IMG/VR virus record: IMGVR_UViG_3300025099_000056
Coordinates: 1-38,432 of that record
Strand: one strand, 5' to 3'
DNA length: 38,432 bases
From: a virus
Below are positions 7,982-38,432 of this stretch, piece after piece (within the stretch, counting starts at the first letter, position 1; each line of letters begins with the position of its first letter). The notes under the pieces were generated by a model. That model worked only from the letters and a program-made list of their open reading frames with translations, ran no database searches and had not been told where the DNA came from. Position numbers and translations under genes: made by a program.

Positions 7982-8152
7982 ATGAAAAAAAGATATAATT
8001 TTACTTTAGATAAGAAAGTAAAACAAAAATTAGAGGAATATTCTAAGGATAACTATACTACAATGTCTGCAGTATTAACTCGTTTAATACTAAGTTTAGA
8101 TAAGAAACCGACAGGTACTATTAAATTACCTGCTAAGAGAATCCAAAGTTAA
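7982..8152 (+). CDS. Small ribbon-helix-helix (CopG/Arc-like) DNA-binding protein
   Basis: This 56-residue protein starts MKKRYNFTLDKKVKQKLEEY, with a basic beta-strand (KRYNFTLD) followed by two helices, the second containing TMSAVLTRLILSL. That is the layout of ribbon-helix-helix repressors such as Arc and CopG. The frame is open back to an ATG at 7961, but that would add MCIGCVY; I prefer the ATG at 7982 because the RHH fold starts there. No clear ribosome binding site is visible for either. It is one of only two plus-strand genes here. It is divergent from the giant fibre gene, with a 63-base shared upstream region, and its last 20 bases overlap the end of the convergent SbcDC gene. It may control itself or its neighbour; the target is inferred. 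Confidence 0.72.
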   Translation: MKKRYNFTLDKKVKQKLEEYSKDNYTTMSAVLTRLILSLDKKPTGTIKLPAKRIQS

Positions 8153-11100
8153 TACTACTATAGCCTGATTGTTTCTTAATTTCTAATAGTGTATCTACAG
8201 TATCTCTCATTTGTTCAATATGAGATACAATAACAACAAATTGGAATTGTGTTTTTAAATACTGAAAGAAGTTATATATAGAGTTTAAATTATCACTATC
8301 CATAGAACCAAATCCCTCATCGATAGCGAGGAAGTTACCTCTTGGTAGATTACATACATTAATTAAACCAACTCGGAGAGCGAGTGATGATATGAATCTT
8401 TCCATACCACTTGATAACTCAAGAGGCCAGATATTATCATCATCATAAACAATATGATTGTTGATGGTTTTCCCATCCATTTCGAAAATAATACCAAAAT
8501 CTACGATTTGAGATAGGATATTGTTCACCTCGCCCTCTATAGTTGGTAAAGCATCTTGTATTAATTTGTATGGAACACCATCCCTACTAACAGCGCTTAA
8601 GTAATATTGATAAGCACCTACCTTATCTTCTAACTCTTCCATTTCACTAATACTCTTTAACAAACCTTTTCTTTTACTATCTAATACTGCTATATTTTTA
8701 TCAGCATCATATTTTTTACCAGCATATTCCTTAATACCAGATTCTAGTATACTAATCTCTGTATCACATTCCTCTATTTTTTTCTCCACAATTCTATTGT
8801 GTACAATAGATTTTTTTTGTCTTTCAAACTTATCTATATCTTCTAAGATATACTTTTTGTTTTGTTTTAAGGATTTAGCTTTTTCTATGATTACTTCTTT
8901 GTTATTTGATAGTTTTTGTAATTTTACATTTAAGTTTTCTACTATCTTTGTTAATGCGTTATACTCATCTTCTTTTAATTCTAAACTATTTACTTTACCT
9001 TTTATCTTTTCTATATCCGACAAATATTCTGTTCTCTGCTCTTTATGTAATTGAATAGATTCAATAGCGTTTTTAGCATCTTTTACAAATGGATTAGTTG
9101 TACAAGCATCACAATCTTCATTCCATTTCCAACTTTGTAATTTATCAATAGCGCCTTGTTCAACTTGTATTTCTGATTCTAAGGTTAGTATTAACTTTTC
9201 GTAATTAAGTAAATTTCTTTTCTCATTTTCAAGTTCAGATAAATCTGGCTTTGTAATATTAACTTGATTCTTTTTTATTTCGTTTTCTACTTCTTCTATT
9301 CTTTCTTCTGTATTAGAAAACTCATCAGCTAAACTTTTAGTTTTTAATTTTACATCTTCTAAGTTTTCATTTAGTTCTTCAATATCTTTTACATCATCAA
9401 TAGGTTTTAATTCTGATACTAACTTAAATCTTTTACTTTCTTCATCGCCCTTTTCTTCCTCAATCTTTTGTAATTGATTTGTAAAATCTTTTAGTTTTAT
9501 CTTTTCTGAATCTATTAATGACATTGTTGTAGTTAGCTCATCTTCAAAGTTAGATTTTTGAAAACTTTTTAGTATTGCTGATTCTTCTTTTACTTTCTCA
9601 GATGCTAACTGCCACAACTTATCAAACACACCAATACCCATAAATTGAGCTAACAATTCTTTCTTTTCTTTTTGTGTTTTATCAAGAAATATACCTGAGT
9701 TATTCTGAGATGATAGTGTTGTTAAAAGAAAGTCATCATAATTACCAATGACATTTTTAATATTGTTGTTGGTTGTTCTTCTTTGGTCACCATTCATAGA
9801 TATCATTTGATTTAGCGACTTATCCCACCTAGTAAAATTAACATCTACTTTTACGTGTCCATTACGTTGTTTTTTACCTTTTCTCTCAATATAATAATCT
9901 ATGCCATCAATCTCTATATTTAACTTACATCTGAACCTATCCTTTTTATTATTTAAAACCATCTCTGCTTTGTAAGCTCTACTACAATTATCAAATAAAC
10001 AAAATGATAACGCATCTAACATAGCAGATTTACCACTAGCATTAGGTGCAAATACTCCAATAATTCCGTTTAGTTCAGTAAAGTCAACCACATTGTTTTC
10101 TCCATAGCTAAACATATTGTCAAACTCAAATTTCTTTATCTTCCAATTTATATTTCTTTGTACATCTTCTTCTGGTAGTATTTGATTTAACTCATCATTA
10201 ATTTCTTTTATCTTTAATTCAGTACTATCATCTACATAGTATTCATCTTTTACGTAGTTTAAAATTAATTCGTTTTGGTAATCTACATTAGATACATCAC
10301 CGATGCTTATTTTATTACCTGTAGAATTATCTGTTATAATACTATCTACCTTATATATTTTACTTTCTGACAATTTGGGATTATCATTCTTTATAATTGA
10401 TAATACCTTTTTTAATTCTGTATCAGTCGTGTTTTTAGAACGTAATCTTAACCTACCTTTTTTTGGAACTAAAGTTGCCCAATCATCAGTAACAATCTTT
10501 CCATCTACCACATCAATAGTTATATGTCCATAATCATTAGGAAGTTCTTTATGTTCAAATGAACGTGATTCAACATCCCAAACAGATATTCCGTGTCCTA
10601 ATAATGCTTCTCCATAGTTTTGCTGTACTAAAGAACCACAATATCTTATAATAGGTTTACCACCTGATTTATCATACTCTTGTAATGTTTGCATCTTATG
10701 AATATCACCAAGTAGTACCATATCATATCCATCCATACTTTCCATCTTAACTTTACTTGGTAGTTTAAAACCTAAATCTGTTAGTGATTGGTCTACTGTT
10801 CCGTGATATAACAACACTTTGGTATCGCCCTCTACATTCTCAGCTCTAAGATAATCCTCTTCTTTATCCCAAACATCCCACACGACAAACGATACATCAG
10901 CAAACTTGTAAACACCACTGTCTTTAAAGTAATGTAGATTAGGGTGGTTTAGATTCTCTACAATCGGTGTTAACACATCCAACCTATGTTGGTTATTTAG
11001 ATTACAATCGTGATTACCTGCGATAATAATCGTTGGAACTATATCAGATAAGTTTTTAAATAACCTTGACAACTGGTCAACCAACTCAGGTGACATTTCT

Positions 11101-11297
11101 GTCTTACTATGTGCTATATCACCACCAATATAAACAACACTATCTTCAGGCTGTTTTCTTATCTCTTCATAAAGTTTTTCAAATACTAACTCAAACTCTT
11201 TATGTCTTTTAAGATTTCTTATTTGTATATCTGATATATGATATATTCTTTTTAACTTACTTATTGAAGTATCAGTAACTCTTGTTTCGTTTTTCAA
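8133..11297 (-). CDS. Fused SbcD-SbcC (Mre11-Rad50; T4 gp47-gp46) recombination nuclease
   Basis: One 1054-residue chain combines what are normally two subunits. Residues 17-260 form a Mre11/SbcD metallophosphatase: HISDIQ (19-25), GGD (58-60), GNHD (94-97), YHG (164-166) and GDIH (197-200). Residues 387 on form a Rad50/SbcC ATPase: Walker A APNASGKS (417-424), long coiled coils, a zinc-hook-like CDAC near 728-731, signature LSSGME near 956 and Walker B FLAIDEGFGSMD near 980. In T4 this complex resects DNA ends for recombination-dependent replication. The first nuclease motif is DIQ where the family usually has DxH. The start must be a TTG (11295-11297): an in-frame TAG lies just upstream, no ATG precedes the nuclease domain, and a GAAGGAAG ribosome site is well placed. 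It overlaps the primase gene by 26 bases. Confidence 0.93.
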   Translation of the reverse strand: MKNETRVTDTSISKLKRIYHISDIQIRNLKRHKEFELVFEKLYEEIRKQPEDSVVYIGGDIAHSKTEMSPELVDQLSRLFKNLSDIVPTIIIAGNHDCNLNNQHRLDVLTPIVENLNHPNLHYFKDSGVYKFADVSFVVWDVWDKEEDYLRAENVEGDTKVLLYHGTVDQSLTDLGFKLPSKVKMESMDGYDMVLLGDIHKMQTLQEYDKSGGKPIIRYCGSLVQQNYGEALLGHGISVWDVESRSFEHKELPNDYGHITIDVVDGKIVTDDWATLVPKKGRLRLRSKNTTDTELKKVLSIIKNDNPKLSESKIYKVDSIITDNSTGNKISIGDVSNVDYQNELILNYVKDEYYVDDSTELKIKEINDELNQILPEEDVQRNINWKIKKFEFDNMFSYGENNVVDFTELNGIIGVFAPNASGKSAMLDALSFCLFDNCSRAYKAEMVLNNKKDRFRCKLNIEIDGIDYYIERKGKKQRNGHVKVDVNFTRWDKSLNQMISMNGDQRRTTNNNIKNVIGNYDDFLLTTLSSQNNSGIFLDKTQKEKKELLAQFMGIGVFDKLWQLASEKVKEESAILKSFQKSNFEDELTTTMSLIDSEKIKLKDFTNQLQKIEEEKGDEESKRFKLVSELKPIDDVKDIEELNENLEDVKLKTKSLADEFSNTEERIEEVENEIKKNQVNITKPDLSELENEKRNLLNYEKLILTLESEIQVEQGAIDKLQSWKWNEDCDACTTNPFVKDAKNAIESIQLHKEQRTEYLSDIEKIKGKVNSLELKEDEYNALTKIVENLNVKLQKLSNNKEVIIEKAKSLKQNKKYILEDIDKFERQKKSIVHNRIVEKKIEECDTEISILESGIKEYAGKKYDADKNIAVLDSKRKGLLKSISEMEELEDKVGAYQYYLSAVSRDGVPYKLIQDALPTIEGEVNNILSQIVDFGIIFEMDGKTINNHIVYDDDNIWPLELSSGMERFISSLALRVGLINVCNLPRGNFLAIDEGFGSMDSDNLNSIYNFFQYLKTQFQFVVIVSHIEQMRDTVDTLLEIKKQSGYSSINFGFS

Positions 11298-12228
11298 AAC
11301 CGCTTCCTTCTAACTTTGATTTAATGATGTCATTAAAAGTTAGTTTATTTGTATTATCTATTTTCTCGGATATTTTATTGTATCCTAATTCATTAGGATC
11401 ATTTTCATCCATCTTTACCATTTTAGTTTGTATACCATAAGATTCTAAATCTCTACTAAGTCTTAAAGAATCCACCTTAGCATCTCCATCTAAAACAATG
11501 TAAGCATCTTTTACTTTCTTATCAAGTAAAGCTAACATTAATTCTTTTGATATAACTTTACCTAACAATGGTATAGCATTTCTTTTTATTGTCATAGCAT
11601 CAAACACACCCTCACATAAGATAATTGGTTCTTCCCAATTAATATACATTTCAAAACAAATGATATTTTTACTTACAGGTGGGTTCTTGTACTTCATACC
11701 ACGATCGTATAAATCTCTAGCTATAAAATAATTTAATCTACCATTCTTGTCATAGGATGGTATAATAATTCTATCTGAATATTCTCCACTCTCACAATAA
11801 CCAATACCATATCTGATTATATCATTATTATCAAATCCTCTTTCTTTTAGAAAGTTTATACATCTTTTTTCTAATGGTGTACTAAATGTATCATAGCTTA
11901 ATCTTTTAAATTCTTTTGGTAGGCTTACCTTTATCTTTTGATTCTTTGATGTTTTTACAACATAGTAATCATCTTGTTCGTTTAGATATTCTTTTAAATC
12001 ACTCCAATCAGCTTGAGATACACCAACTGCTTTAAATAACTGATATAAGTTATGCCCACCTTGATTACTAACCCAACAATGCCACTTCTGATTCTTGATG
12101 TTTACTTGTAACTTAGGTTTATGGTGAGTAATAAATGGTGACCAGAACATATACTCATCTGTCTTTTTTAATTTAGTATATGTTGAACCAATCGCTCGAG
12201 ATAAAATATTGAGTATTGTATTATCCAT
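11272..12228 (-). CDS. DNA primase, DnaG/T4 gp61-like, with a degenerate zinc ribbon
   Basis: This 318-residue protein has an N-terminal segment laid out like the DnaG CHC2 zinc ribbon (about 28-66: SPFITHHKPKLQV..WHCWVSNQGG), then a TOPRIM domain. TOPRIM motifs are CEGVFDAM (E206), VLDGDA (D247, D249) and NDPNEL (276-281). The enzyme should make RNA primers for lagging-strand synthesis, working with a helicase encoded outside the window. Where the family has Cys pairs (CPxC..CWVC), Ser or Ile stand instead at most positions and only C51 is left, so zinc binding is probably lost or altered. It lies between a PD-(D/E)xK nuclease and SbcDC, overlapping both, in a replication/recombination operon. 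TOPRIM is clear; the primase call rests on TOPRIM plus the degenerate ribbon. Confidence 0.85.
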   Translation of the reverse strand: MDNTILNILSRAIGSTYTKLKKTDEYMFWSPFITHHKPKLQVNIKNQKWHCWVSNQGGHNLYQLFKAVGVSQADWSDLKEYLNEQDDYYVVKTSKNQKIKVSLPKEFKRLSYDTFSTPLEKRCINFLKERGFDNNDIIRYGIGYCESGEYSDRIIIPSYDKNGRLNYFIARDLYDRGMKYKNPPVSKNIICFEMYINWEEPIILCEGVFDAMTIKRNAIPLLGKVISKELMLALLDKKVKDAYIVLDGDAKVDSLRLSRDLESYGIQTKMVKMDENDPNELGYNKISEKIDNTNKLTFNDIIKSKLEGSGFEKRNKSY

Positions 12229-12556
12229 TTAATAACTTTAGTAGGTCTTCAAATTCCAAAACTGCGTAACGTTTACTTCTGTTTCTTTTAAATACCACTA
12301 AAGGTGTATGTCCATTTGCATTTTCTTCTGCTTGTTCAATCGCTGACCATATGTTAAGTTTCTCGTGAGCTTTACACTCTACAGAGAAAGGAAATAACTT
12401 TCTAGCAGCTGGTGATAATAATATATCTTCACCACTAGCACCCATACTTGTTGAACGAACATCATCTTCTTCTAACGAAGAAAATTTTTCAAGTATAAGC
12501 TCTTTTATTTCTTTTTGTAGTCTACGACCTTTTGCTTTTGCTGATTGAGTTTTCAA
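12221..12556 (-). CDS. PD-(D/E)xK nuclease, Holliday-junction-resolvase-like
   Basis: This is a compact 111-residue protein. The fold signature is GEDILLSP (D44), a beta-strand with FSVECK (E60, K62), and a following helix with IEQAEENA. A basic N-terminal helix (AKAKGRRLQKEI) could bind DNA. The arrangement matches small phage nucleases of the PD-(D/E)xK superfamily, including archaeal Hjc-like resolvases and VRR-NUC-type enzymes. The order nuclease-primase-SbcDC, with the nuclease end overlapping the primase start by 8 bases, points to a role in recombination or branched-DNA processing before packaging. Motif residues are visible; the exact substrate (junction, flap or nick) is inferred. 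Confidence 0.72.
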   Translation of the reverse strand: MKTQSAKAKGRRLQKEIKELILEKFSSLEEDDVRSTSMGASGEDILLSPAARKLFPFSVECKAHEKLNIWSAIEQAEENANGHTPLVVFKRNRSKRYAVLEFEDLLKLLNG

Positions 12557-12623
12557 TAATGGTATTATTTTCTTCTTAAATCTTTAAAACTTTTTCCAGT
12601 AAATAGGGTTTAAAAACCTGATA

Positions 12624-13010
12624 TTAAATTTTATTTTTCCACCTACGATATTCTTTTAATCCCCACGCTTCTGCCTGTTCTTCAAACTTATTATCATCGT
12701 GAAAATCACCACCTTTTTGTATAGCTAATTCACCAGCTATCTCATATTCTCGTTGATATCTAGCCTTACCTAACTTCTTTCTATCTAATGCGTGTTTGAT
12801 TTCGTGTAGAACCGTTACTAAAAAATCTTTTATCGTTGGGTAAGATGGTTTTAGATTTATTGTATCTGATATCCAATCATAATCTGCTTTATTATTACCA
12901 CTCATTCTACCAAATCTTACTTTTGATTTGAGTTTATATGCTTTTACTAAACTTTTTGCAGTCTCTAAGTAATCAACTCTTTCAAAGAGTAGTGATTTTA
13001 ATTTTATCAT
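12624..13010 (-). CDS. Zincin-type metalloprotease with a putative capsid-targeting leader
   Basis: The protein has 128 residues and a HExxH zinc-protease motif, VLHEIKHALD (H69, E70, H73), followed by an acidic helix region (YEIAGELAI, 89-97; KFEEQAEAWG, 108-117) that could supply the third ligand. The first ten residues are MIKLKSLLFE. They are nearly the same as the starts of the genes at 36867 and 37193 and end in (L/I)xE, the cleavage pattern of the T4 prohead protease gp21. It starts with an ATGA overlap on the tail/structural gene at 13007, so it is co-translated with virion genes rather than with the replication genes downstream. I infer a protein packed into the capsid, trimmed during maturation and perhaps injected. 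Protease activity itself is not shown. Confidence 0.75.
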   Translation of the reverse strand: MIKLKSLLFERVDYLETAKSLVKAYKLKSKVRFGRMSGNNKADYDWISDTINLKPSYPTIKDFLVTVLHEIKHALDRKKLGKARYQREYEIAGELAIQKGGDFHDDNKFEEQAEAWGLKEYRRWKNKI

Positions 13011-13987
13011 ACATCGAACCTCACTACAAAGTTCAACATTAAATCTTTATCATTTTTAATTGGATGAGCTAATTTACCAATAGCCATCAATTCGTTTTTA
13101 TCGTTATATAATCCTATTGTAGTTACGTAAGGTTCAAATAAACTACTTGTAGCCAAGTTAATAGATTCAGAGGCAGCACTGTAACTACCACTAAAAGAAC
13201 CTGTACCATTTGTTGGATTATCGCCTGGTGGGAAAAATCTTTGTACAAAAGAAGCTGGTAAACCTGATGGTATTTCGTGTCTACCACCTCTATCTTTAGC
13301 TATACTAATATTAGTTGTACCATTAAATTCGTTTCTATCTACGTAACAATTATACTCATATTCATAATGTGTTTGAGTAGCTCTAAAATCTACTTCAAAA
13401 CCATCACTACCTACATCAGAACCTACTACAGAATAAGAGCCTGTATCTGTTATTACCATTACACCGTGTGAGTAGAATATATTACCAATAGAACCTGTCG
13501 CTCCCGAGGCGAATGATGATGAGTTAGCGTTATCGTAAATATTTCCTTTACCATCATCTTTTAAAGTATATGTTGTAGCACCACCATTGTCTGTAATTGT
13601 TACAGAGCCTGGCTTTATTGCTTCACCAAATAATTGTTGTGGAATTGTTATGACTTGAGCTGTACCGTGTAAAGTCATTTTCTTATCAGCTACATTACCA
13701 ATACCATAAGAATTGTAAGGTTCATCTTTTCTAGCATAGTATAATTGATTTATGGTAAACCAACTTGGGAGAGCATAATATGTTGCGAATGGTTTGTTAT
13801 CTGGTGATGGAGTTCCTTCAAAAAAACTAGCAGAATCGGCTGAGCCTGATGAGAATATATGGGATGAACCACTCTCTACAGAAAACCCAAAGACACCACT
13901 ACCACTATCCATATCAGTAACAGTGAATTGTTTATGGGTCTTAAACGATTCTACTGAGGTATCACCGTCTTTGAAAGTCTTAAACAT
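13007..13987 (-). CDS. Virion structural protein, paralogue of the upstream gene
   Basis: The 326-residue protein is rich in Ser, Gly, Thr and aromatic residues and is predicted mostly beta. Its C-terminus (PYVTTIGLYNDKNELMAIGKL..VVRFDV) closely matches that of the neighbour at 13998 (VYVTTVGLYNDNNELLAVAKL..KVKLDF). I recognise this C-terminal block from structural proteins of marine T4-like phages, but no precise function is known to me. A ribosome site (AAAGGAGT) precedes the ATG at 13985-13987. The stop overlaps the start of the zincin gene (ATGA), so the two are translationally coupled. The N-terminal parts of the paralogues differ strongly, as if one domain diversified while the assembly domain was kept. 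Confidence 0.75.
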   Translation of the reverse strand: MFKTFKDGDTSVESFKTHKQFTVTDMDSGSGVFGFSVESGSSHIFSSGSADSASFFEGTPSPDNKPFATYYALPSWFTINQLYYARKDEPYNSYGIGNVADKKMTLHGTAQVITIPQQLFGEAIKPGSVTITDNGGATTYTLKDDGKGNIYDNANSSSFASGATGSIGNIFYSHGVMVITDTGSYSVVGSDVGSDGFEVDFRATQTHYEYEYNCYVDRNEFNGTTNISIAKDRGGRHEIPSGLPASFVQRFFPPGDNPTNGTGSFSGSYSAASESINLATSSLFEPYVTTIGLYNDKNELMAIGKLAHPIKNDKDLMLNFVVRFDV

Positions 13988-27786: not shown

Positions 27787-28011
27787 ATGAAGGAAGTCGT
27801 AGCAATGGTCAGAGGATGGATGGATGATGTTACCCATCTTCTACTATCCTTTGTAGCTATCGGTGCTGTTTCTGAAGTAATATTCGGAACTGGCGTCTTT
27901 GGCGTAAATGTTGTAGGAAACCTAACAGGATTAATCAACCAATTCGGTGAATCAGGATTTGCAGGATTAGTTGCATTATTAGTGTTAGTAGGTTTATTCC
28001 GAAAATCGTAG
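27787..28011 (+). CDS. Small hydrophobic protein, stand-alone plus-strand gene
   Basis: This 74-residue protein starts MKEVVAMVRGWMDDVTHLLL and is preceded by an ideal AGGAG (27775-27779) 7 bases from the ATG. Hydrophobic stretches cover about 17-44 (HLLLSFVAIGAVSEVIFGTGV) and 58-71 (GLVALLVLVGLF), ending in RKS, so it is probably a two-pass membrane protein or a hydrophobic coat-like peptide. It has its own promoter and strong terminator and stands alone between two minus-strand blocks; base composition looks less AT-rich than its surroundings. Such isolation with strong signals suggests high, separately timed expression. A holin or superinfection-exclusion protein fits size and topology, but no family is recognised, and a capsid decoration role cannot be excluded. 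Confidence 0.8.
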   Translation: MKEVVAMVRGWMDDVTHLLLSFVAIGAVSEVIFGTGVFGVNVVGNLTGLINQFGESGFAGLVALLVLVGLFRKS

Positions 28012-29019: not shown

Positions 29020-29807
29020 ACATCATCTCCAAATAGTTCTTTAAATAAATCCTTAGATTTAGAGCCTAATTTATCTTCTTTCTTCTCCACCTGCTTATCA
29101 TCAGTTTTTAGAACACCTACCATCTTCTGATACTTCTGTTTATGCTCTTCTTCTTCCACCTCTATACTACGTTTCCACTCATCGTACTCAATCTTAGTAG
29201 CCATCATATCTGCTTGATGTATAACATATGCGATATTTGATTTCAAAGCCCAATCAGGATTATAAGACATATAGTAAGACTTATTAGCCTCTTCATATAA
29301 ACCATCTGCCAATCGTAAACCGATGTACTCATTTTCTGTCATAGGAATCTGAAATTGATTAAGTAAAAATACTGCTCTATCAGTAACCGACATATATTGT
29401 AATGCACCATTATGTGTGAATATCTCACCACGATTCTTTCTATGCCACTCACTCTCTTGTGGAACATAGTAATCTTTATCCATATCACCAACCTTACCTA
29501 AGTCGTGATGCATAGCTGCGAAGATAACTTCTTCTGTAGTGAAGTTAACCCTAGCACCCTCTGCTGCCCAAAGATTCATAACCTTTAGTGCACAATCTAT
29601 AACGTGTAAAACGTGTTCTACATAACCACCAATATGTGCGTAGTGAAATTGTTCTCTACCACTCGCTGGAGCCATACACATTCTATCTTCAAAATAATCG
29701 TACATCGTATTCAGTTTATCTAAACGTTCACCCTCAAATGTATTGGAAATCAAGTTACGAAGTTGTTCCCAATTCTTTTGGATTTGTTCAGCTGTTAGTT
29801 GTTTCAT
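29016..29807 (-). CDS. HD-domain phosphohydrolase
   Basis: I take the start at the ATG at 29805-29807 (MKQLTAEQIQKN), which has AAAGGAT before it; the frame extends further into the glycosyltransferase gene without a better site. The 263-residue protein carries the metal-binding HD pattern: EHVLHV (H65), AAMHHDLGK (H100, H101, D102) and VIHQADMMA (H197, D200). HD enzymes cleave phosphoesters of nucleotides, cyclic nucleotides or RNA 3' ends; the general layout recalls YhaM-type and nucleotidase-type domains. The C-terminus is charged and ends KELFGDDV. It overlaps the glycosyltransferase by 20 bases, so it may take part in nucleotide supply or modification chemistry. Substrate unknown. Confidence 0.82.
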   Translation of the reverse strand: MKQLTAEQIQKNWEQLRNLISNTFEGERLDKLNTMYDYFEDRMCMAPASGREQFHYAHIGGYVEHVLHVIDCALKVMNLWAAEGARVNFTTEEVIFAAMHHDLGKVGDMDKDYYVPQESEWHRKNRGEIFTHNGALQYMSVTDRAVFLLNQFQIPMTENEYIGLRLADGLYEEANKSYYMSYNPDWALKSNIAYVIHQADMMATKIEYDEWKRSIEVEEEEHKQKYQKMVGVLKTDDKQVEKKEDKLGSKSKDLFKELFGDDV

Positions 29808-31131
29808 ATCTATCCTTTGTGAATTTAATAGTTGGTTCTTGTCTAAGTTTATTTCTATAACCACTAAAACCTATTCTAACACCCCAACCTAAGTGTTCGA
29901 TAATGTCTTTCTTAGTAACTGATTTTTTCGTATGAATAAAATCAACTATTTTTTTGTAGCTATCTGTTTTTTGTTTTATTGTTTTTAAATTTAATATTGT
30001 TTCATCAAGCATATTATTGAACTGAGTTATTGCAGATTCCCACTTACACTCTTCAAATCTATCTAATGAACGTTTAGAATAATCCTCTCTAATTGATACA
30101 TCATCTAAAACCTCTTCTAACTTTTCTAAGAAGTTATTGTTATCATAGTAGATACCTGCAGAACTTGCAAGTTCACAATAGTAATCAGCATTTAAAAATA
30201 AGTAAGGAACACCTACACTCATACCATCAGTAGCTGATACAGCCCATCCACTATACTTTTGTTTCGCACATACACCAATGTAACAAGAAGATAACTTAGA
30301 GAAATATCCGAATCTATCGTATTTATCATTTGTTAGATATTCTCTACCCTCAGTAGAATCTGCAAGTGGAACCCATACCTCAAAGTCTTTTCTTTGTTCC
30401 CAAAGTTTATCCATTTGTTCTAAAAACCACGGATAATTTTTGTATGTATGAGGGCGGTGATTGAATACGATAATCTTTTTATCTGTAGTTTGATTCTCGT
30501 ATTTTGGAATCTCCCAACCAAGATATTGTGGTTCAAGAATCTCATCTAACCTTTTAACTACTTTATCATTAAAATGGCTTCTAGCATTTTTTAAAATTAA
30601 CTTCTTCTGTCCTTGTGTATTTATACCACATTTATCCATCTCTAAAATACCCAAGAAGTTTACATCCATCATAGTCATACTATAATTTGTAATCTCAGGA
30701 AATTCAGTCCAATGGGTGTACCCAATAAATCTTGGTTCCATATTTGTATTATTTATAATTGCATTCTTTAGTTGTAAAGTATGTTCAGGTAAATGAGAAT
30801 ACACAATATCATAGTCTCTTTTTTTCCATTGTAATGCTTTTACTATTGTATCATAATCAAAATGAGTTCTCATAGCATTTGGATATGATGGTAGTGGTAA
30901 TACTAATTGTTCTGTATTAGGAAAATCTAAGCTGTTAATATGATGTGGTGAAAATATTGTAAAATGTATATCATCACGTATCTTATTTAACTCCCTAATA
31001 ATATTACATAATACTACTACATAAGAATCTTTTTCTAAGTCTTGTTGATATGTTATATTCGGATATACGAGTACATTGTACTTATACTCTTTATCGCTTG
31101 TCTTATCTTTTGTAAAATTTAATATATTCAC
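29788..31131 (-). CDS. GT-B-type glycosyltransferase with C-terminal helix-turn-helix
   Basis: The 447-residue protein has two Rossmann-like halves: an N-terminal one with YDIVYSHLPEHTLQ and FIGYTHWTEFPE (107-145), and a C-terminal one with KIIVFNHRPHTYKNYPWFLE (219-238) and SGWAVSATDGMSVGVPYLFL (294-313), the sugar-nucleotide site of GT-B enzymes. The last ~55 residues (391-445) form a winged-helix-like unit (SVTKKDIIEHLGW, GFSGYRNKLRQE). A DNA-binding appendage suggests DNA is the acceptor, as for T4 alpha- and beta-glucosyltransferases, though sequence similarity to those is not evident. The start is GTG (31129-31131) overlapping the Mom-like gene's TGA. The context of Mom- and DruA-like genes supports DNA modification. 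The GT call is firm; DNA as substrate is inferred. Confidence 0.82.
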   Translation of the reverse strand: MNILNFTKDKTSDKEYKYNVLVYPNITYQQDLEKDSYVVVLCNIIRELNKIRDDIHFTIFSPHHINSLDFPNTEQLVLPLPSYPNAMRTHFDYDTIVKALQWKKRDYDIVYSHLPEHTLQLKNAIINNTNMEPRFIGYTHWTEFPEITNYSMTMMDVNFLGILEMDKCGINTQGQKKLILKNARSHFNDKVVKRLDEILEPQYLGWEIPKYENQTTDKKIIVFNHRPHTYKNYPWFLEQMDKLWEQRKDFEVWVPLADSTEGREYLTNDKYDRFGYFSKLSSCYIGVCAKQKYSGWAVSATDGMSVGVPYLFLNADYYCELASSAGIYYDNNNFLEKLEEVLDDVSIREDYSKRSLDRFEECKWESAITQFNNMLDETILNLKTIKQKTDSYKKIVDFIHTKKSVTKKDIIEHLGWGVRIGFSGYRNKLRQEPTIKFTKDRYETTNS

Positions 31132-31748
31132 GAAAATATTTTCCTTGTCTTTTTATCCAATGGTAAAATATAGATATGTTTTGGTGGTAGTGGTTCAGTC
31201 CAAATATTCTCATCACCCTTTTTCATACGTTGTCTAATATTTTCAAATTTAGGACTTTTTTTAGTTAACATCCTAGCGTGATACTTCTCACCATCAGCTA
31301 TCAACATCCTACTCGGTTTTGTCATTCCTAAATGTATAAAGTTAGTTGCTTTGTATATAACACCCTCGTGTCCTTGAAAAGTATCCGCATAGGACAGAAT
31401 AAGCTTGTAATTTGTATGCTTTTTTAACCAAGTAATGGCTTTACCAATAAAGTAACTTTCTGTATTCTTGACTGTATCGTCAATACAACAAAGTCTATTT
31501 AATTCTATAACTCTATCTGGTGTTTCTGGCATATAACTTTCTGCAACACCAGCCATAGCTGGTATTCCAAACATCATAGCACCAATTAATTTTGGTATCC
31601 CAAACTTTCCACTTGGTGAAAATAATCCGAAACAATAACTGATATGTAAACCTCTTACACTTTTTGAATAATGATTTTTTCTAACAAAATCTTCTATTGC
31701 GTTTGTAGGTACTTTTTCTACAAAATAATCTGTAACTTTATCTTCCAA
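31128..31748 (-). CDS. Mom-like DNA adenine-modification enzyme (GNAT-type fold)
   Basis: The 206-residue protein shows the signature of phage Mu Mom relatives: KNHYSKS (24-30), ELNRLCCIDD (82-91), NTESYFIGKAITWL (95-108), LSYAD (118-122) and GHEGVIYKATNFIHLG (126-141). Mu Mom converts adenine in phage DNA to N6-carbamoylmethyladenine and so blocks restriction enzymes. TTG (31746-31748) is the only possible start: an in-frame TAG lies six bases upstream and no ATG occurs before the conserved core. It overlaps the DruA-like gene by 11 bases and is followed by the glycosyltransferase with a GTGA overlap, so all three are translated together. No com-like translational activator is seen. Family call strong; actual base product untested. 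Confidence 0.88.
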   Translation of the reverse strand: MEDKVTDYFVEKVPTNAIEDFVRKNHYSKSVRGLHISYCFGLFSPSGKFGIPKLIGAMMFGIPAMAGVAESYMPETPDRVIELNRLCCIDDTVKNTESYFIGKAITWLKKHTNYKLILSYADTFQGHEGVIYKATNFIHLGMTKPSRMLIADGEKYHARMLTKKSPKFENIRQRMKKGDENIWTEPLPPKHIYILPLDKKTRKIFS

Positions 31749-32937
31749 CTTCGCCTATATATTTTTCTCTTGTTTGTTCCCAATCTAATCCTATGATATC
31801 TCCATAGAATAAAATATCATCTTTTAACTTCCCGGAAGTTAACAACTTTTCATATCTTTTACAAGCCTTTTTTTTCCACCAATCCATAACACCATCTATG
31901 TCTTGTTCAAATCTTGGTTTTAACTTTAACTCACTTTCAGATATCTCACCTCTTAGATATTCTCTACTATTTTCATAGTAAGTTAGGTAGAATACGCCAC
32001 GTTTAAATCCGTGTTCATATGCAGTTGTCCTTATCCCTAACTCTTGAAATATAAGATTTAGTATTCTTTGTTTTACACCTGTAACAGGACCTGAATCCTT
32101 ATCTTTACTTTGTATGTGTTTTGCATACTTTTCTGATTTATTATCTTTATACCAATCGTGCCACTTCTGAAAGAAATCATCGTCAGGCTTTAATGAGATT
32201 CTACCAGCAGATTCACCAAGTGTTTTCCAATAAGGAATACCATTGTACATAGAGTGTATACCATATAGTGATGTAGTTGTAACTCCAGCTAACTTTTCTC
32301 CATATAACTTTTCCCATTGTTCTCTAAACGTTTTAGTAGATATTAATGCTGCGATTAATTTACCACCTAAGAAATTAAATCCAAATGGTTGTGTAGAACA
32401 TATAGTTGTAGCTATAGTAGAGTTTTTTAATTTACCATCGGTTAATTTATTATCTTTACTCCAACCAATGTAAGAATCTCTAGCACTAATAGCTATAACA
32501 TCAGAACCAAAACATATAACACCAAGTATCTTATTACTTGTCTCATCCATAACAATAAACTTTACGTTTCTACCTGGATTAGCTGTAAACTCCATCGTAT
32601 GAATAAGTCTACGAATAAGAGTCCAATATTCATTCTGTCTTGAATCACCTTGTTTGATTGGAATGATTTTTGGTTTTATTGATTGTATCTCTGCTAGTGT
32701 TGTTTCTCTATCCGATAAGTTTGTTGGTTTCCATAACTTAGGTTTAATCGTATGAATCTTGCTAGCTTTTTGTCTAATCTCATAGTCGTTATGATTAAAC
32801 TCTTTCCACTTCTTATAAAGTGTAGATTCTTGGACACTCATAGTTTTCAAAAAATCCATATGTTCTATGAACTTCTGCTTTTCATCTTCGTAGATGAACT
32901 TATCTGGATCCTCGAAAAAGTTTTCGAATAACTCCAT
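31738..32937 (-). CDS. DruA/DUF4338-like protein
   Basis: The 399-residue protein has a core (about 105-250) with the pattern of DUF4338/DruA proteins: LIRRLIHTMEFTANPGRNVK, ILGVICFGSD, RDSYIGWS (153-160), FLGGKLIAAL, VTTTSLYG (219-226) and YWKTLGESAGR (236-246). DruA is a component of the Druantia anti-phage system; phage-borne relatives exist but I know no established role. The pattern HYLG/LGxxxFG..RDxxIGW..GxTxGR is also loosely similar to the GNAT-like Mom fold, and the next gene is Mom-like. The N-terminal ~100 residues are helical; the C-terminus is basic (WWKKKACKRYEK). The gene lies 22 bases after the 3D-domain gene. I infer a role in the same modification pathway, with moderate confidence. 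Confidence 0.68.
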   Translation of the reverse strand: MELFENFFEDPDKFIYEDEKQKFIEHMDFLKTMSVQESTLYKKWKEFNHNDYEIRQKASKIHTIKPKLWKPTNLSDRETTLAEIQSIKPKIIPIKQGDSRQNEYWTLIRRLIHTMEFTANPGRNVKFIVMDETSNKILGVICFGSDVIAISARDSYIGWSKDNKLTDGKLKNSTIATTICSTQPFGFNFLGGKLIAALISTKTFREQWEKLYGEKLAGVTTTSLYGIHSMYNGIPYWKTLGESAGRISLKPDDDFFQKWHDWYKDNKSEKYAKHIQSKDKDSGPVTGVKQRILNLIFQELGIRTTAYEHGFKRGVFYLTYYENSREYLRGEISESELKLKPRFEQDIDGVMDWWKKKACKRYEKLLTSGKLKDDILFYGDIIGLDWEQTREKYIGEVGR

Positions 32938-36866: not shown

Positions 36867-37193
36867 TTATTTATTTCTATTTAATGCATTTAAAATATCA
36901 GAAACTCTAAAATTATCCTTTTCGATATAATGTTTATCCTCACGATTATTCATAATTTTTTTTATTTTATTAATTTGAGCTGGTTTTAATTTTACTTTTT
37001 TCTGTTTTTTTAATATATTTTCTGATGATGTGCCGCCACCCTTATAAAAGTCTTGTCTCAAATCAAAATCAACAACTTTCCACTTACCTTTTACAAAGTG
37101 TTTATCTATCACCAACTCTATCTGTCCATTATTATCATAAGCGCTTCCTACTTCTACAGATTGTTCATTTAATATGTCCATTAACTTAATCAT
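36867..37193 (-). CDS. Small internal-head-type protein with capsid-leader-like N-terminus
   Basis: The 108-residue protein begins MIKLMDILNEQSVEVG, very like the starts of the genes at 12624 and 37193 and ending in LNE, the (L/I)xE pattern cut by T4 prohead protease. The rest is a Lys-rich small domain (GQIELVIDKHFVKGKWKVVD; KKQKKVKLKPAQINKIKKIM) with a helical C-terminus. Its ATG (37191-37193) overlaps the upstream stop. A small, basic, DNA-compatible protein packed in the capsid, like T4 internal proteins IPI-IPIII, is the natural reading. No enzymatic motif seen. Confidence 0.72.
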   Translation of the reverse strand: MIKLMDILNEQSVEVGSAYDNNGQIELVIDKHFVKGKWKVVDFDLRQDFYKGGGTSSENILKKQKKVKLKPAQINKIKKIMNNREDKHYIEKDNFRVSDILNALNRNK

Positions 37194-38209
37194 TAGAATT
37201 TACCTTGTATAATCCTACCAGCTTTGGCTGCAACACTTCTAGCATCATCATCTGCACGATAGTAGGCTAGTTTTCCACCCTTTTTCTTTTCTTGTTCCTC
37301 ATCATATTTTGTTGATTCAATATATCTTCCGAAATCACCATATAAATCTTCCATTGAACGTGTGATACGAGACATATACTCGTATACCTTTTTTTCTTCA
37401 TTTGTAGTCCAACTATTATACTGCTTTAGTAACTTATCAAACTTAGCTGATGGTTTACCACCGATAGCTGCGGCTATCAATCCATTGGTAAAATCTTTTG
37501 CTGCTTTTACTTTAGCATTCACTTTCTTTTTATCTTTGTATGTTTGATTAAGTAAATCTCTATATCTTCTTTCGTTTCCATCTCTAAACTCACCATCGCT
37601 TTTCCACTTCCAAGAACCCTCACCAACTGCTTGTCTCAATTCTCTTTTTTCTTTACCACCCATATAAGGCATATTTTCATCTAAAGTCACCTGATAGTAA
37701 ACAATGCCGGGTAGTGATTGTACAGCAGCTAAACTTTGGTATCCAAACTTATCAATACCAAAAGACATCTTATCATCACCATAAAGTGAACTTCTTGGAC
37801 CAGCTTGCATCGATGTGCCTTTTCCTGTAGCCCCTTTACGTTTTTGGTCTACATTTCTCCAAGATTTTGTATACCAAAGTGGTTTACCATCTCTTAGCAC
37901 AATAAGTGCAGTTCCCTTTTCTACTTGTCGAATAGAATTGTAATCACCATATCTTTTTTTAGATGGTAAATCCATCTTTTTTGTTGCGACTGCAAACTCT
38001 ATACCTTTTTTCTTAGGTTTTGTATTCTTTTCTATTTGGCTATCCGTAACCTTATCCCATTGAACACCAAGTCTTGCACCATAGGTAAAGAAGTCTCTAT
38101 CTAAACCTTGAAAGTTGTTCACCATTTTTCTAAGGATAGAACTTCTAAATGCTTCTGATAATACACCTGAAGATTTGGATTCTCTTATTATATCTTTTAA
38201 TTTAATCAT
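37193..38209 (-). CDS. 338-residue protein with capsid-leader-like N-terminus
   Basis: The start is the ATG at 38207-38209 (MIKLKDIIRESKSSGVLSEA); the frame also runs back to a TTG at 38219-38221, which I reject because the leader motif begins at the ATG. The first ten residues end in IRE, the prohead-protease pattern. The body is basic and has aromatic- and Gly-rich segments: RKMVNNFQGLDRDFFTYGAR, TALIVLRDGKPLWYTKSWRN, LPGIVYYQVTLDENMPYMGG. The C-terminal half has helices (KAAKDFTNGLIAAAIGGKPS). I recognise no enzyme family. Large size and leader recall T4 Alt, an injected enzyme, but ADP-ribosyltransferase motifs are not evident. It lies 13 bases after the partial gene at the right edge. 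Confidence 0.74.
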   Translation of the reverse strand: MIKLKDIIRESKSSGVLSEAFRSSILRKMVNNFQGLDRDFFTYGARLGVQWDKVTDSQIEKNTKPKKKGIEFAVATKKMDLPSKKRYGDYNSIRQVEKGTALIVLRDGKPLWYTKSWRNVDQKRKGATGKGTSMQAGPRSSLYGDDKMSFGIDKFGYQSLAAVQSLPGIVYYQVTLDENMPYMGGKEKRELRQAVGEGSWKWKSDGEFRDGNERRYRDLLNQTYKDKKKVNAKVKAAKDFTNGLIAAAIGGKPSAKFDKLLKQYNSWTTNEEKKVYEYMSRITRSMEDLYGDFGRYIESTKYDEEQEKKKGGKLAYYRADDDARSVAAKAGRIIQGKF

Positions 38210-38222
38210 ATTATCTTTCAAA

Positions 38223-38432
38223 CTATTTAAAATATTTTAAAATTAATTGTTTCATCTTTGGTAATTGTATAGCTCTGAATTTTTTCTGTAATCTTGGATT
38301 TTTATTGTAAGCCTTATCAATGGTTACTATGAGATTAGCGGTCTGTAAATCAATACCCTTTTCGTGTTGTTTATTTTTAAGAACCTTTTTAGCCACTTCA
38401 ACACCACTAACTTCATTTACTGATTCTTTTAT
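38223..38432 (-). CDS. Small basic protein, 5' end off the right edge
   Basis: The frame is open from the right edge to the TAG at 38223-38225 and gives 69 residues, starting (within the window) IKESVNEVSGVEVAKKVLKN and ending RAIQLPKMKQLILKYFK. It is Lys-rich and helical. The first visible residues, IKE followed by Ser, look like the end of the same leader found in the next gene (IIRESKSS), so the true start probably lies only a few codons beyond the window. If so, it is another small capsid-internal protein. Confidence 0.65.
   Translation of the reverse strand: MKESVNEVSGVEVAKKVLKNKQHEKGIDLQTANLIVTIDKAYNKNPRLQKKFRAIQLPKMKQLILKYFK

What the first reader, a model, noticed from the sequence alone, without database searches (positions are those of the whole stretch)
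12624..13010. A zinc-protease-like protein with the same capsid leader, far from the other carriers
The leader MIKLKSLLFE appears 24 kb away on a protein with HEIKH. Its start is coupled (ATGA) to a structural gene. If packed and injected, this would be a metalloprotease delivered into the host at the start of infection, for instance to cut a host regulator or defence protein. Gene location apart from the other leader genes makes a common targeting function more convincing than simple duplication.
Basis: partly seen in the sequence, partly recalled or inferred. Interest (0 to 1): 0.75.

Follow-up and report, generated by a model that had tools for sequence, protein, structure and literature searches.

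The report
Head-packaged phage zinc protease with cleavable leader
A marine T4-like phage makes a small zinc-protease-type protein that starts with a 10-residue capsid-packing tag shared by dozens of unrelated phage proteins, so it is probably packed in the virus head, trimmed there by the phage's own head protease, and injected into the host; relatives string such cargo together as polyproteins with the same cut site between the parts.

Summary
ORF 13010→12624 (-) is a conserved 128-aa protein with 66 relatives in IMG/VR and none in the isolated-phage collection. It starts MIKLKSLLFE, overlaps the upstream gene by ATGA, and carries HEIKH at 69-73. AlphaFold2 (pLDDT 89.9) gives a zincin core with invariant H69, E70, H73 and E110.

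The leader matches T4's capsid-targeting sequence in length (10 aa), in its key positions (4, 7, 8, 10) and in the gp21 cut motif L/I-x-E. It also resembles the T4 gp24 propeptide MAKINELLRE. In related contigs it heads about 20 unrelated protein families, and leader genes concentrate between the gp23 capsid and gp21 protease genes.

New here: in relatives the zincin is fused to Nudix, HD, nucleotidyltransferase-like, kinase and other modules. At 36 of 46 internal junctions the motif [LIVMF]-x-E sits exactly before the module, against a 2% background. This suggests prohead-protease-processed effector polyproteins.

Packaging, cleavage, injection and proteolysis are inferred, not shown. gp21 and gp23 are not in the window record itself, which is a fragment. 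The host target is unknown. Filed as a new variant of T4-type internal (ejection) proteins that overlaps the "polyvalent protein" zincins.

The parts
12624..13010 (-). zincin-like metallopeptidase gene with capsid-targeting-type leader, 128 aa
   Evidence: ORF; 66 IMG/VR relatives; AlphaFold2 pLDDT 89.9; PF18818 MPTase-PolyVal matches 43 of 44 members, below the curated cut-off
12981..13010 (-). 10-residue leader MIKLKSLLFE; predicted gp21-type cut after Glu10 (codon 12981-12983)
   Evidence: unbiased leader statistics; T4 comparison; residues 1-10 pLDDT 62 against 91 or more for residues 11-30
12792..12806 (-). HEIKH zinc-binding and catalytic motif, residues 69-73
   Evidence: H69, E70 and H73 invariant in 44 sequences
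12783..12785 (-). Asp76, three residues after HExxH, a feature reported for phage-type polyvalent zincins
   Evidence: nearly invariant; PMC5512222 section 8
12681..12683 (-). Glu110, predicted third zinc ligand in the C-terminal helix
   Evidence: invariant; helix 108-124 in the model
13019..13022 (-). GAGG Shine-Dalgarno-like sequence, 8 nt from the start codon
   Evidence: sequence upstream of the ATG
13007..13987 (-). upstream gene, probable virion structural protein, translationally coupled by ATGA
   Evidence: no Pfam or PHROGs hit, so the structural role is inferred from composition and context
36867..37193 (-). second leader carrier (MIKLMDILNE), 108 aa, unknown function
   Evidence: a homologue with leader VIKLKDLLSE lies between gp23 and gp21 in G005
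37193..38209 (-). third leader carrier (MIKLKDIIRE), 338 aa, unknown function
   Evidence: a homologue lies between gp23 and gp21 in G002

Best explanation
The gene encodes a capsid-packaged (internal, ejection-type) zincin of a far-T4 marine phage. It is made late by translational coupling to the upstream gene. The leader MIKLKSLLFE binds the prohead core, as the T4 capsid-targeting sequence does. The gp21-type prohead protease cuts after Glu10 and leaves a 118-residue mature zincin (R11 to I128) inside the head, which enters the cell with the DNA. There it most likely acts as an early effector protease on a host protein (inferred). In relatives the same module is one part of larger head polyproteins whose modules (Nudix, HD, kinase and others) are separated by the same [L/I/V]-x-E site, so one precursor would deliver several effectors. 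Shown by computation: leader family, T4 match, zincin fold, junction motif, gp21 and gp23 in cousins. Inferred: packaging, cleavage, injection, activity, target.
For: Zincin fold and site: AlphaFold2 pLDDT 89.9, order helix, three strands, HExxH helix, helix, Glu110 helix. H69, E70, H73 and E110 are invariant. MPTase-PolyVal matches 43 of 44 members. The top viral Foldseek neighbours include IrrE-like and SprT-like proteins at probability 1.0. Leader: E10, L4, L7/I7 and L8 recur across 35 unrelated clusters. T4 literature: targeting maps to CTS residues 4 and 7, processing to 8 and 10, gp21 motif L/I-x-E (PMC9026906). A matrix built from these leaders ranks T4 gp24 (MAKINELLRE|S) first and Alt (MELITELFDE|D) fifth of 229 candidate starts in 75 kb of T4. 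Head context: gp21 family in 7 and gp23 in 6 of 30 contigs; 12 of 17 leader genes fall in the gp23-gp21 interval, hypergeometric P = 6e-8; the gp23 N-termini carry QL[IV]xE|[AS]. Junctions: 36 of 46 exact, background 0.022; the conserved positions are -3 and -1, not -12 to -4.
Against: No virion proteomics for any member. The window and its nearest long relative (G001, 60 kb) do not hold gp21 or gp23; both are fragments. The residue after the predicted cut is Arg throughout the zincin family, unlike A/S/D in T4. A distant clade (L060, L061, L063-L066) seems to lack the leader. Profile scores stay below curated cut-offs, and PDB fold matches are weak (best E 0.27). E10, R11 and D13 are conserved together, so part of the motif could belong to the domain.
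Confidence: 0.7

Rival explanations
1. The zincin is packaged, but its job is to process phage polyproteins (autoproteolysis or release of fused modules), as proposed for zincins of polyvalent proteins, rather than to cut host proteins.
For: Iyer et al. 2017 propose processing by zincin-like MPTases in multidomain phage proteins (PMC5512222). The module is fused to other domains in many relatives.
Against: Polyproteins without a zincin (L110, L107, L118, L123) have the same [LIVMF]-x-E junctions. The gp23 capsid protein has the same site and gp21 is present in the same contigs, so no second processing enzyme is needed. The window's zincin stands alone.
Confidence: 0.14
2. The leader packages the protein, but the zincin is a structural or head-maturation factor, or a degenerate non-proteolytic domain, with no effector role in the host.
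For: Leader genes include small proteins in the core gene cluster. No substrate is known.
Against: The complete HExxH plus Glu110 set is invariant across 44 diverse members, which argues for catalysis. Cargo elsewhere is enzymatic: Nudix, HD, kinase.
Confidence: 0.1
3. The shared N-terminus is a relic of gene duplication or part of the domain and has no targeting function.
For: E10, R11 and D13 are conserved within the zincin family. Leader genes occur in tandem clusters, e.g. L041.
Against: Cargo families are unrelated after residue 10 and information drops there. Eight kinase-module junctions share only [IVL]-x-E with otherwise different upstream sequence. The leader is of low confidence in the model while the domain is not.
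Confidence: 0.06

Closest known systems
T4 internal/ejection proteins IPI, IPII, IPIII and Alt with their capsid-targeting sequence
   Same: 10-residue N-terminal propeptide with hydrophobic residues at 4 and 7 and an (L/I)-x-E type site at 8-10; shared by unrelated cargo; gp21 and gp23 in related contigs
   Different: Different leader flavour (MIKLKxLLxE against MKTYQEFIAE and MELITELFDE); a zincin cargo rather than an inhibitor or ADP-ribosyltransferase; many more carriers per phage; fused multi-module cargo; virion presence not shown
T4 gp24 vertex-protein propeptide MAKINELLRE
   Same: Best T4 match to the leader matrix; 10 residues, ends L-x-E followed by S; gp24 loses a short propeptide to gp21 (PMC5694885)
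   Different: gp24 is a shell protein; here the leader is on soluble, enzyme-like cargo
MPTase-PolyVal zincins (PF18818) of polyvalent proteins
   Same: Fold order, HExxH plus C-terminal-helix Glu, Asp three residues after HExxH, fusion to unrelated enzymatic domains in phage proteins
   Different: Scores below the Pfam cut-off; here a standalone 118-aa domain behind a capsid-targeting leader; junctions carry a prohead-protease motif, whereas Iyer et al. proposed zincin autoprocessing
phiKZ/SPN3US inner-body ejection proteins cut by gp175/gp245
   Same: Head proteins cut C-terminal to a short x-x-E motif by a gp21 relative
   Different: Those lose long N-terminal propeptides; here unrelated modules appear to be separated by the cut motif

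Membership tests
T4-type CTS-bearing internal head protein | short N-terminal propeptide ending in the gp21 motif (L/I)-x-E | tested here: met
   MIKLKSLLFE: L8-F9-E10; motif from PMC9026906
T4-type CTS-bearing internal head protein | targeting residues 4 and 7 | tested here: met
   L4 and L7 here; conserved in 35 clusters selected without them
T4-type CTS-bearing internal head protein | leader shared by otherwise unrelated proteins of the phage group | tested here: met
T4-type CTS-bearing internal head protein | gp21-type protease and gp23-type capsid in the same phage | tested here: inconclusive
   Found in related contigs; not in the window record, a 38-kb fragment, nor in its nearest long relative G001
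T4-type CTS-bearing internal head protein | present in the virion, leader removed, ejected into the host | not testable with these tools
   needs virion mass spectrometry
MPTase-PolyVal (PF18818) zincin | fold: N-terminal helix, 3-stranded sheet, HExxH helix, Glu helix | tested here: met
   AlphaFold2 model, pLDDT 89.9; fold description in PMC5512222
MPTase-PolyVal (PF18818) zincin | HExxH plus C-terminal-helix Glu | tested here: met
   H69, E70, H73 and E110 invariant
MPTase-PolyVal (PF18818) zincin | Pfam gathering score 27.5 bits | tested here: not met
   15.6 bits for the window protein; 43 of 44 relatives match at E up to 0.1, best E 1.3e-5. A divergent relative, not a filed member
ImmA/IrrE (Peptidase_M78, PF06114) | profile match | tested here: not met
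   1 of 44 members at E 0.002; only a distant structural neighbour
SprT-like (PF10263) | profile match | tested here: not met
   1 of 44 members at E 0.07; distant structural neighbour

The most novel reading that the evidence does not exclude
Far-T4 marine phages build head-packaged polyproteins in which interchangeable effector modules (zincin, Nudix, HD, zeta/AAA-type kinase, nucleotidyltransferase-like, ligase-like) are joined by prohead-protease sites. A single precursor with one targeting leader is loaded into the prohead and cut into several separate injected enzymes by the gp21-type protease, much as Gag-Pol-type precursors are cut during maturation. The window's zincin is one such module in standalone form.
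Probability: 0.5. Interest if true: 0.82.

Novelty: new variant of a known kind. Interest (0 to 1): 0.62.

Why it matters
T4 internal proteins were known as a small set of hypervariable injected proteins. If the reading is right, a 10-residue tag readable from sequence marks the injected proteome of a large group of uncultured aquatic phages. That would allow head-delivered effectors, including likely counter-defence enzymes, to be listed by computation. The junction motif also makes a direct prediction: mature N-termini immediately after [L/I/V]-x-E.

Tried and rejected
- Search of the isolated-phage collection with the zincin: no match, so no isolate with this gene is at hand.
- NCBIfam and PADLOC: nothing for the zincin.
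- PDB sequence profile search: nothing useful (best hit a ribosomal protein, E 0.32).
- PDB Foldseek: only weak zincin neighbours such as PprI/IrrE, selecase and a zincin toxin domain, E 0.27 or worse. Fold assignment therefore rests on the model, the motif and the viral neighbours.
- phrog_4529 'minor head protein and DNA pilot' (E 6e-4): spans the HExxH region only; not used as evidence of head location.
- Statistics on alignment A2 (leader columns nearly invariant) were rejected as circular, because those proteins were picked by a leader-shaped DNA pattern. The unbiased M-I-K test was used instead.
- Generic blastp-start pooling of polyproteins is blurred, because alignments run into linkers. 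The leader-anchored test is the clean one.
- The polyprotein model (L004) is of low overall confidence (pLDDT 65.8, 17 sequences). Three of four predicted cut sites lie inside low-confidence stretches and the fourth is two residues before one. Supportive only.
- Searches for virion proteomics of close isolates, and for the leader string in papers, found nothing.

Full report
1. The observation. The minus-strand ORF 13010-12624 is 128 aa, starts MIKLKSLLFE and holds HEIKH at 69-73. Its ATG overlaps the TGA of the upstream gene (ATGA), and GAGG lies 8 nt upstream. 66 IMG/VR loci encode relatives at 37-97% identity; no isolated-phage record does. The window is itself a 38,432-base virus record and a fragment. 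Comparison with L001 shows mostly synonymous change.

2. The domain. Across 44 aligned relatives H69, E70, H73 and E110 are invariant and D76 nearly so. AlphaFold2 on that alignment gives pLDDT 89.9 and the order helix 4-24, three strands, HExxH helix 60-80, helix 82-98, Glu helix 108-124; residues 1-10 are of low confidence (62) and residues 11-30 of high confidence. This is the core described for zincin MPTases of polyvalent proteins, including an Asp three residues after HExxH (PMC5512222). Pfam MPTase-PolyVal matches 43 of 44 members, but below its curated cut-off. Structural neighbours among viral models include IrrE-like and SprT-like zincins at probability 1.0; PDB neighbours are weak. 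It is a divergent zincin, related to but not formally inside PF18818.

3. The leader. T4 work places capsid targeting of IPIII in its first 10 residues, targeting mainly at 4 and 7 and processing at 8 and 10, with gp21 cutting after L/I-x-E (PMC9026906). T4 sequences read here are IPII/IPIII MKTYQEFIAE|A, Alt MELITELFDE|D, gp24 MAKINELLRE|S and gp23 FLTE|AEI. The window leader has L4, L7, L8 and E10. Selecting ORFs only for an M-I-K start gave 35 unrelated clusters, with Glu at position 10 in 20 (background 7%) and a sharp loss of conservation from position 11. A matrix from these leaders, scored on 229 candidate starts in 75 kb of T4, ranks gp24 first and Alt fifth; the IPs rank 32nd and 33rd, so they carry a different flavour of tag.

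4. Genomic setting. Of 30 contigs with zincin relatives, 7 hold a gp21-type protease (PF03420) and 6 a gp23-type capsid gene (PF07068). In the six contigs with both, 12 of 17 leader genes lie in the gp23-gp21 interval, which holds 58 of 420 genes (P = 6e-8). The gp23 N-termini carry QL[IV]xE|[AS]S, the same form of site. Neither gene is in the window record or in the 60-kb near relative G001. Homologues of the window's other carriers (36867-37193, 37193-38209) sit in that head cluster in G005 and G002. In several relatives the zincin gene is next to further leader genes, so its isolation in this window is not general.

5. Polyproteins. In many relatives the zincin is not alone. It follows a Nudix domain (5e-13), an HD domain (3e-9), a 'YISxGQLNQVEKYLD' module or an 'EPDTGF' module, or it ends proteins of about 970-1320 aa with a zeta/AAA-type kinase. 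Using leader-bearing standalone proteins to define where modules begin, 46 non-identical internal junctions were found. [LIVMF]-x-E ends exactly at the junction in 36, against about 1 at a typical other offset and a background of 0.022 per position. At the zincin junctions, conservation upstream is confined to -3 and -1; the eight kinase junctions share only [IVL]-x-E. In polyproteins that lack a zincin, modules come in different orders with the motif kept: GLSE|ALPTK, GLSE|AFAVRG, GLSE|APRVPRKK, PVIE|APRVPRKK, KVNE|AFAVRG. The kinase module of isolated phages Melnitz (MKTFAELQE|GVYDP) and HTVC008M (MIPFILKE|GLYDP) also begins right after such a site. A model of one fusion puts three of four predicted cut sites in low-confidence linkers and the fourth two residues from one.

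6. Mechanism. Best reading: late synthesis, core binding through the leader, cleavage by the gp21-type protease after Glu10, retention in the mature head, injection with DNA, and action as an early protease in the host. The first part rests on the leader, site and context evidence; injection, activity and target are inferred from T4 internal proteins and polyvalent proteins. The main rival is a processing role for the zincin. It is disfavoured because polyproteins without a zincin and the capsid protein carry the same site.

7. Limits. No virion proteomics; gp21 not seen in this record; Arg at P1' is unusual; a distant clade lacks the leader; host unknown.

8. Novelty. Capsid-targeting leaders and polyvalent zincins are each known. 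Their combination, the breadth of the leader family, and prohead-protease motifs at module junctions were not found in the papers searched (the library is partial). Filed as a new variant of a known kind.

Noticed in passing
window 8133-11297 (-): Single 1054-aa chain with an Mre11-type phosphoesterase (Metallophos 2e-10) fused to an SMC/Rad50-type ATPase (SMC_N 3e-7, below cut-off); T4 encodes gp47 and gp46 separately (from memory).
   Followed up: partly
window 29788-32937 (-): Three adjacent genes: glycosyltransferase-like (6e-4), Mom DNA-modification family (3e-40) and a DruA-like protein (4e-29 Pfam, 4e-27 PADLOC). Possibly a DNA hypermodification or counter-defence cassette.
   Followed up: partly
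L110:8265-13193 (-), L107:13718-17647, L118, L123: 1300-1640-aa polyproteins with zeta/AAA-type kinase, cytidylyltransferase-like and ligase-like (EKLDGQN) modules in differing order, with [LIVMF]-x-E at boundaries.
   Followed up: partly
L055:8342-9262, L152, L178, L220, L166 and others: A recurrent ~300-aa leader-bearing family ('WYPAHTRDAL...FHVTD') with no Pfam match, often beside the zincin gene.
   Followed up: no
L164:472-1008 (+); L188:11213-11752 (+): Leader-bearing proteins that by eye resemble an ADP-ribosyltransferase ('YHYTN..I.REGLL') and a protein kinase ('FFDKGANGRIYKI...FLFKI'); not confirmed by profile search.
   Followed up: no
window 38223-38432 (-): 5'-truncated ORF '..IKESVNEV..' that may be the C-terminal module of a longer gene like G001 12064-13323, with its own I-x-E|S site.
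   Followed up: no
window 27787-28011 (+): Small hydrophobic ORF on the opposite strand within a minus-strand gene block; holin- or membrane-protein-like by eye, no Pfam hit.
   Followed up: no
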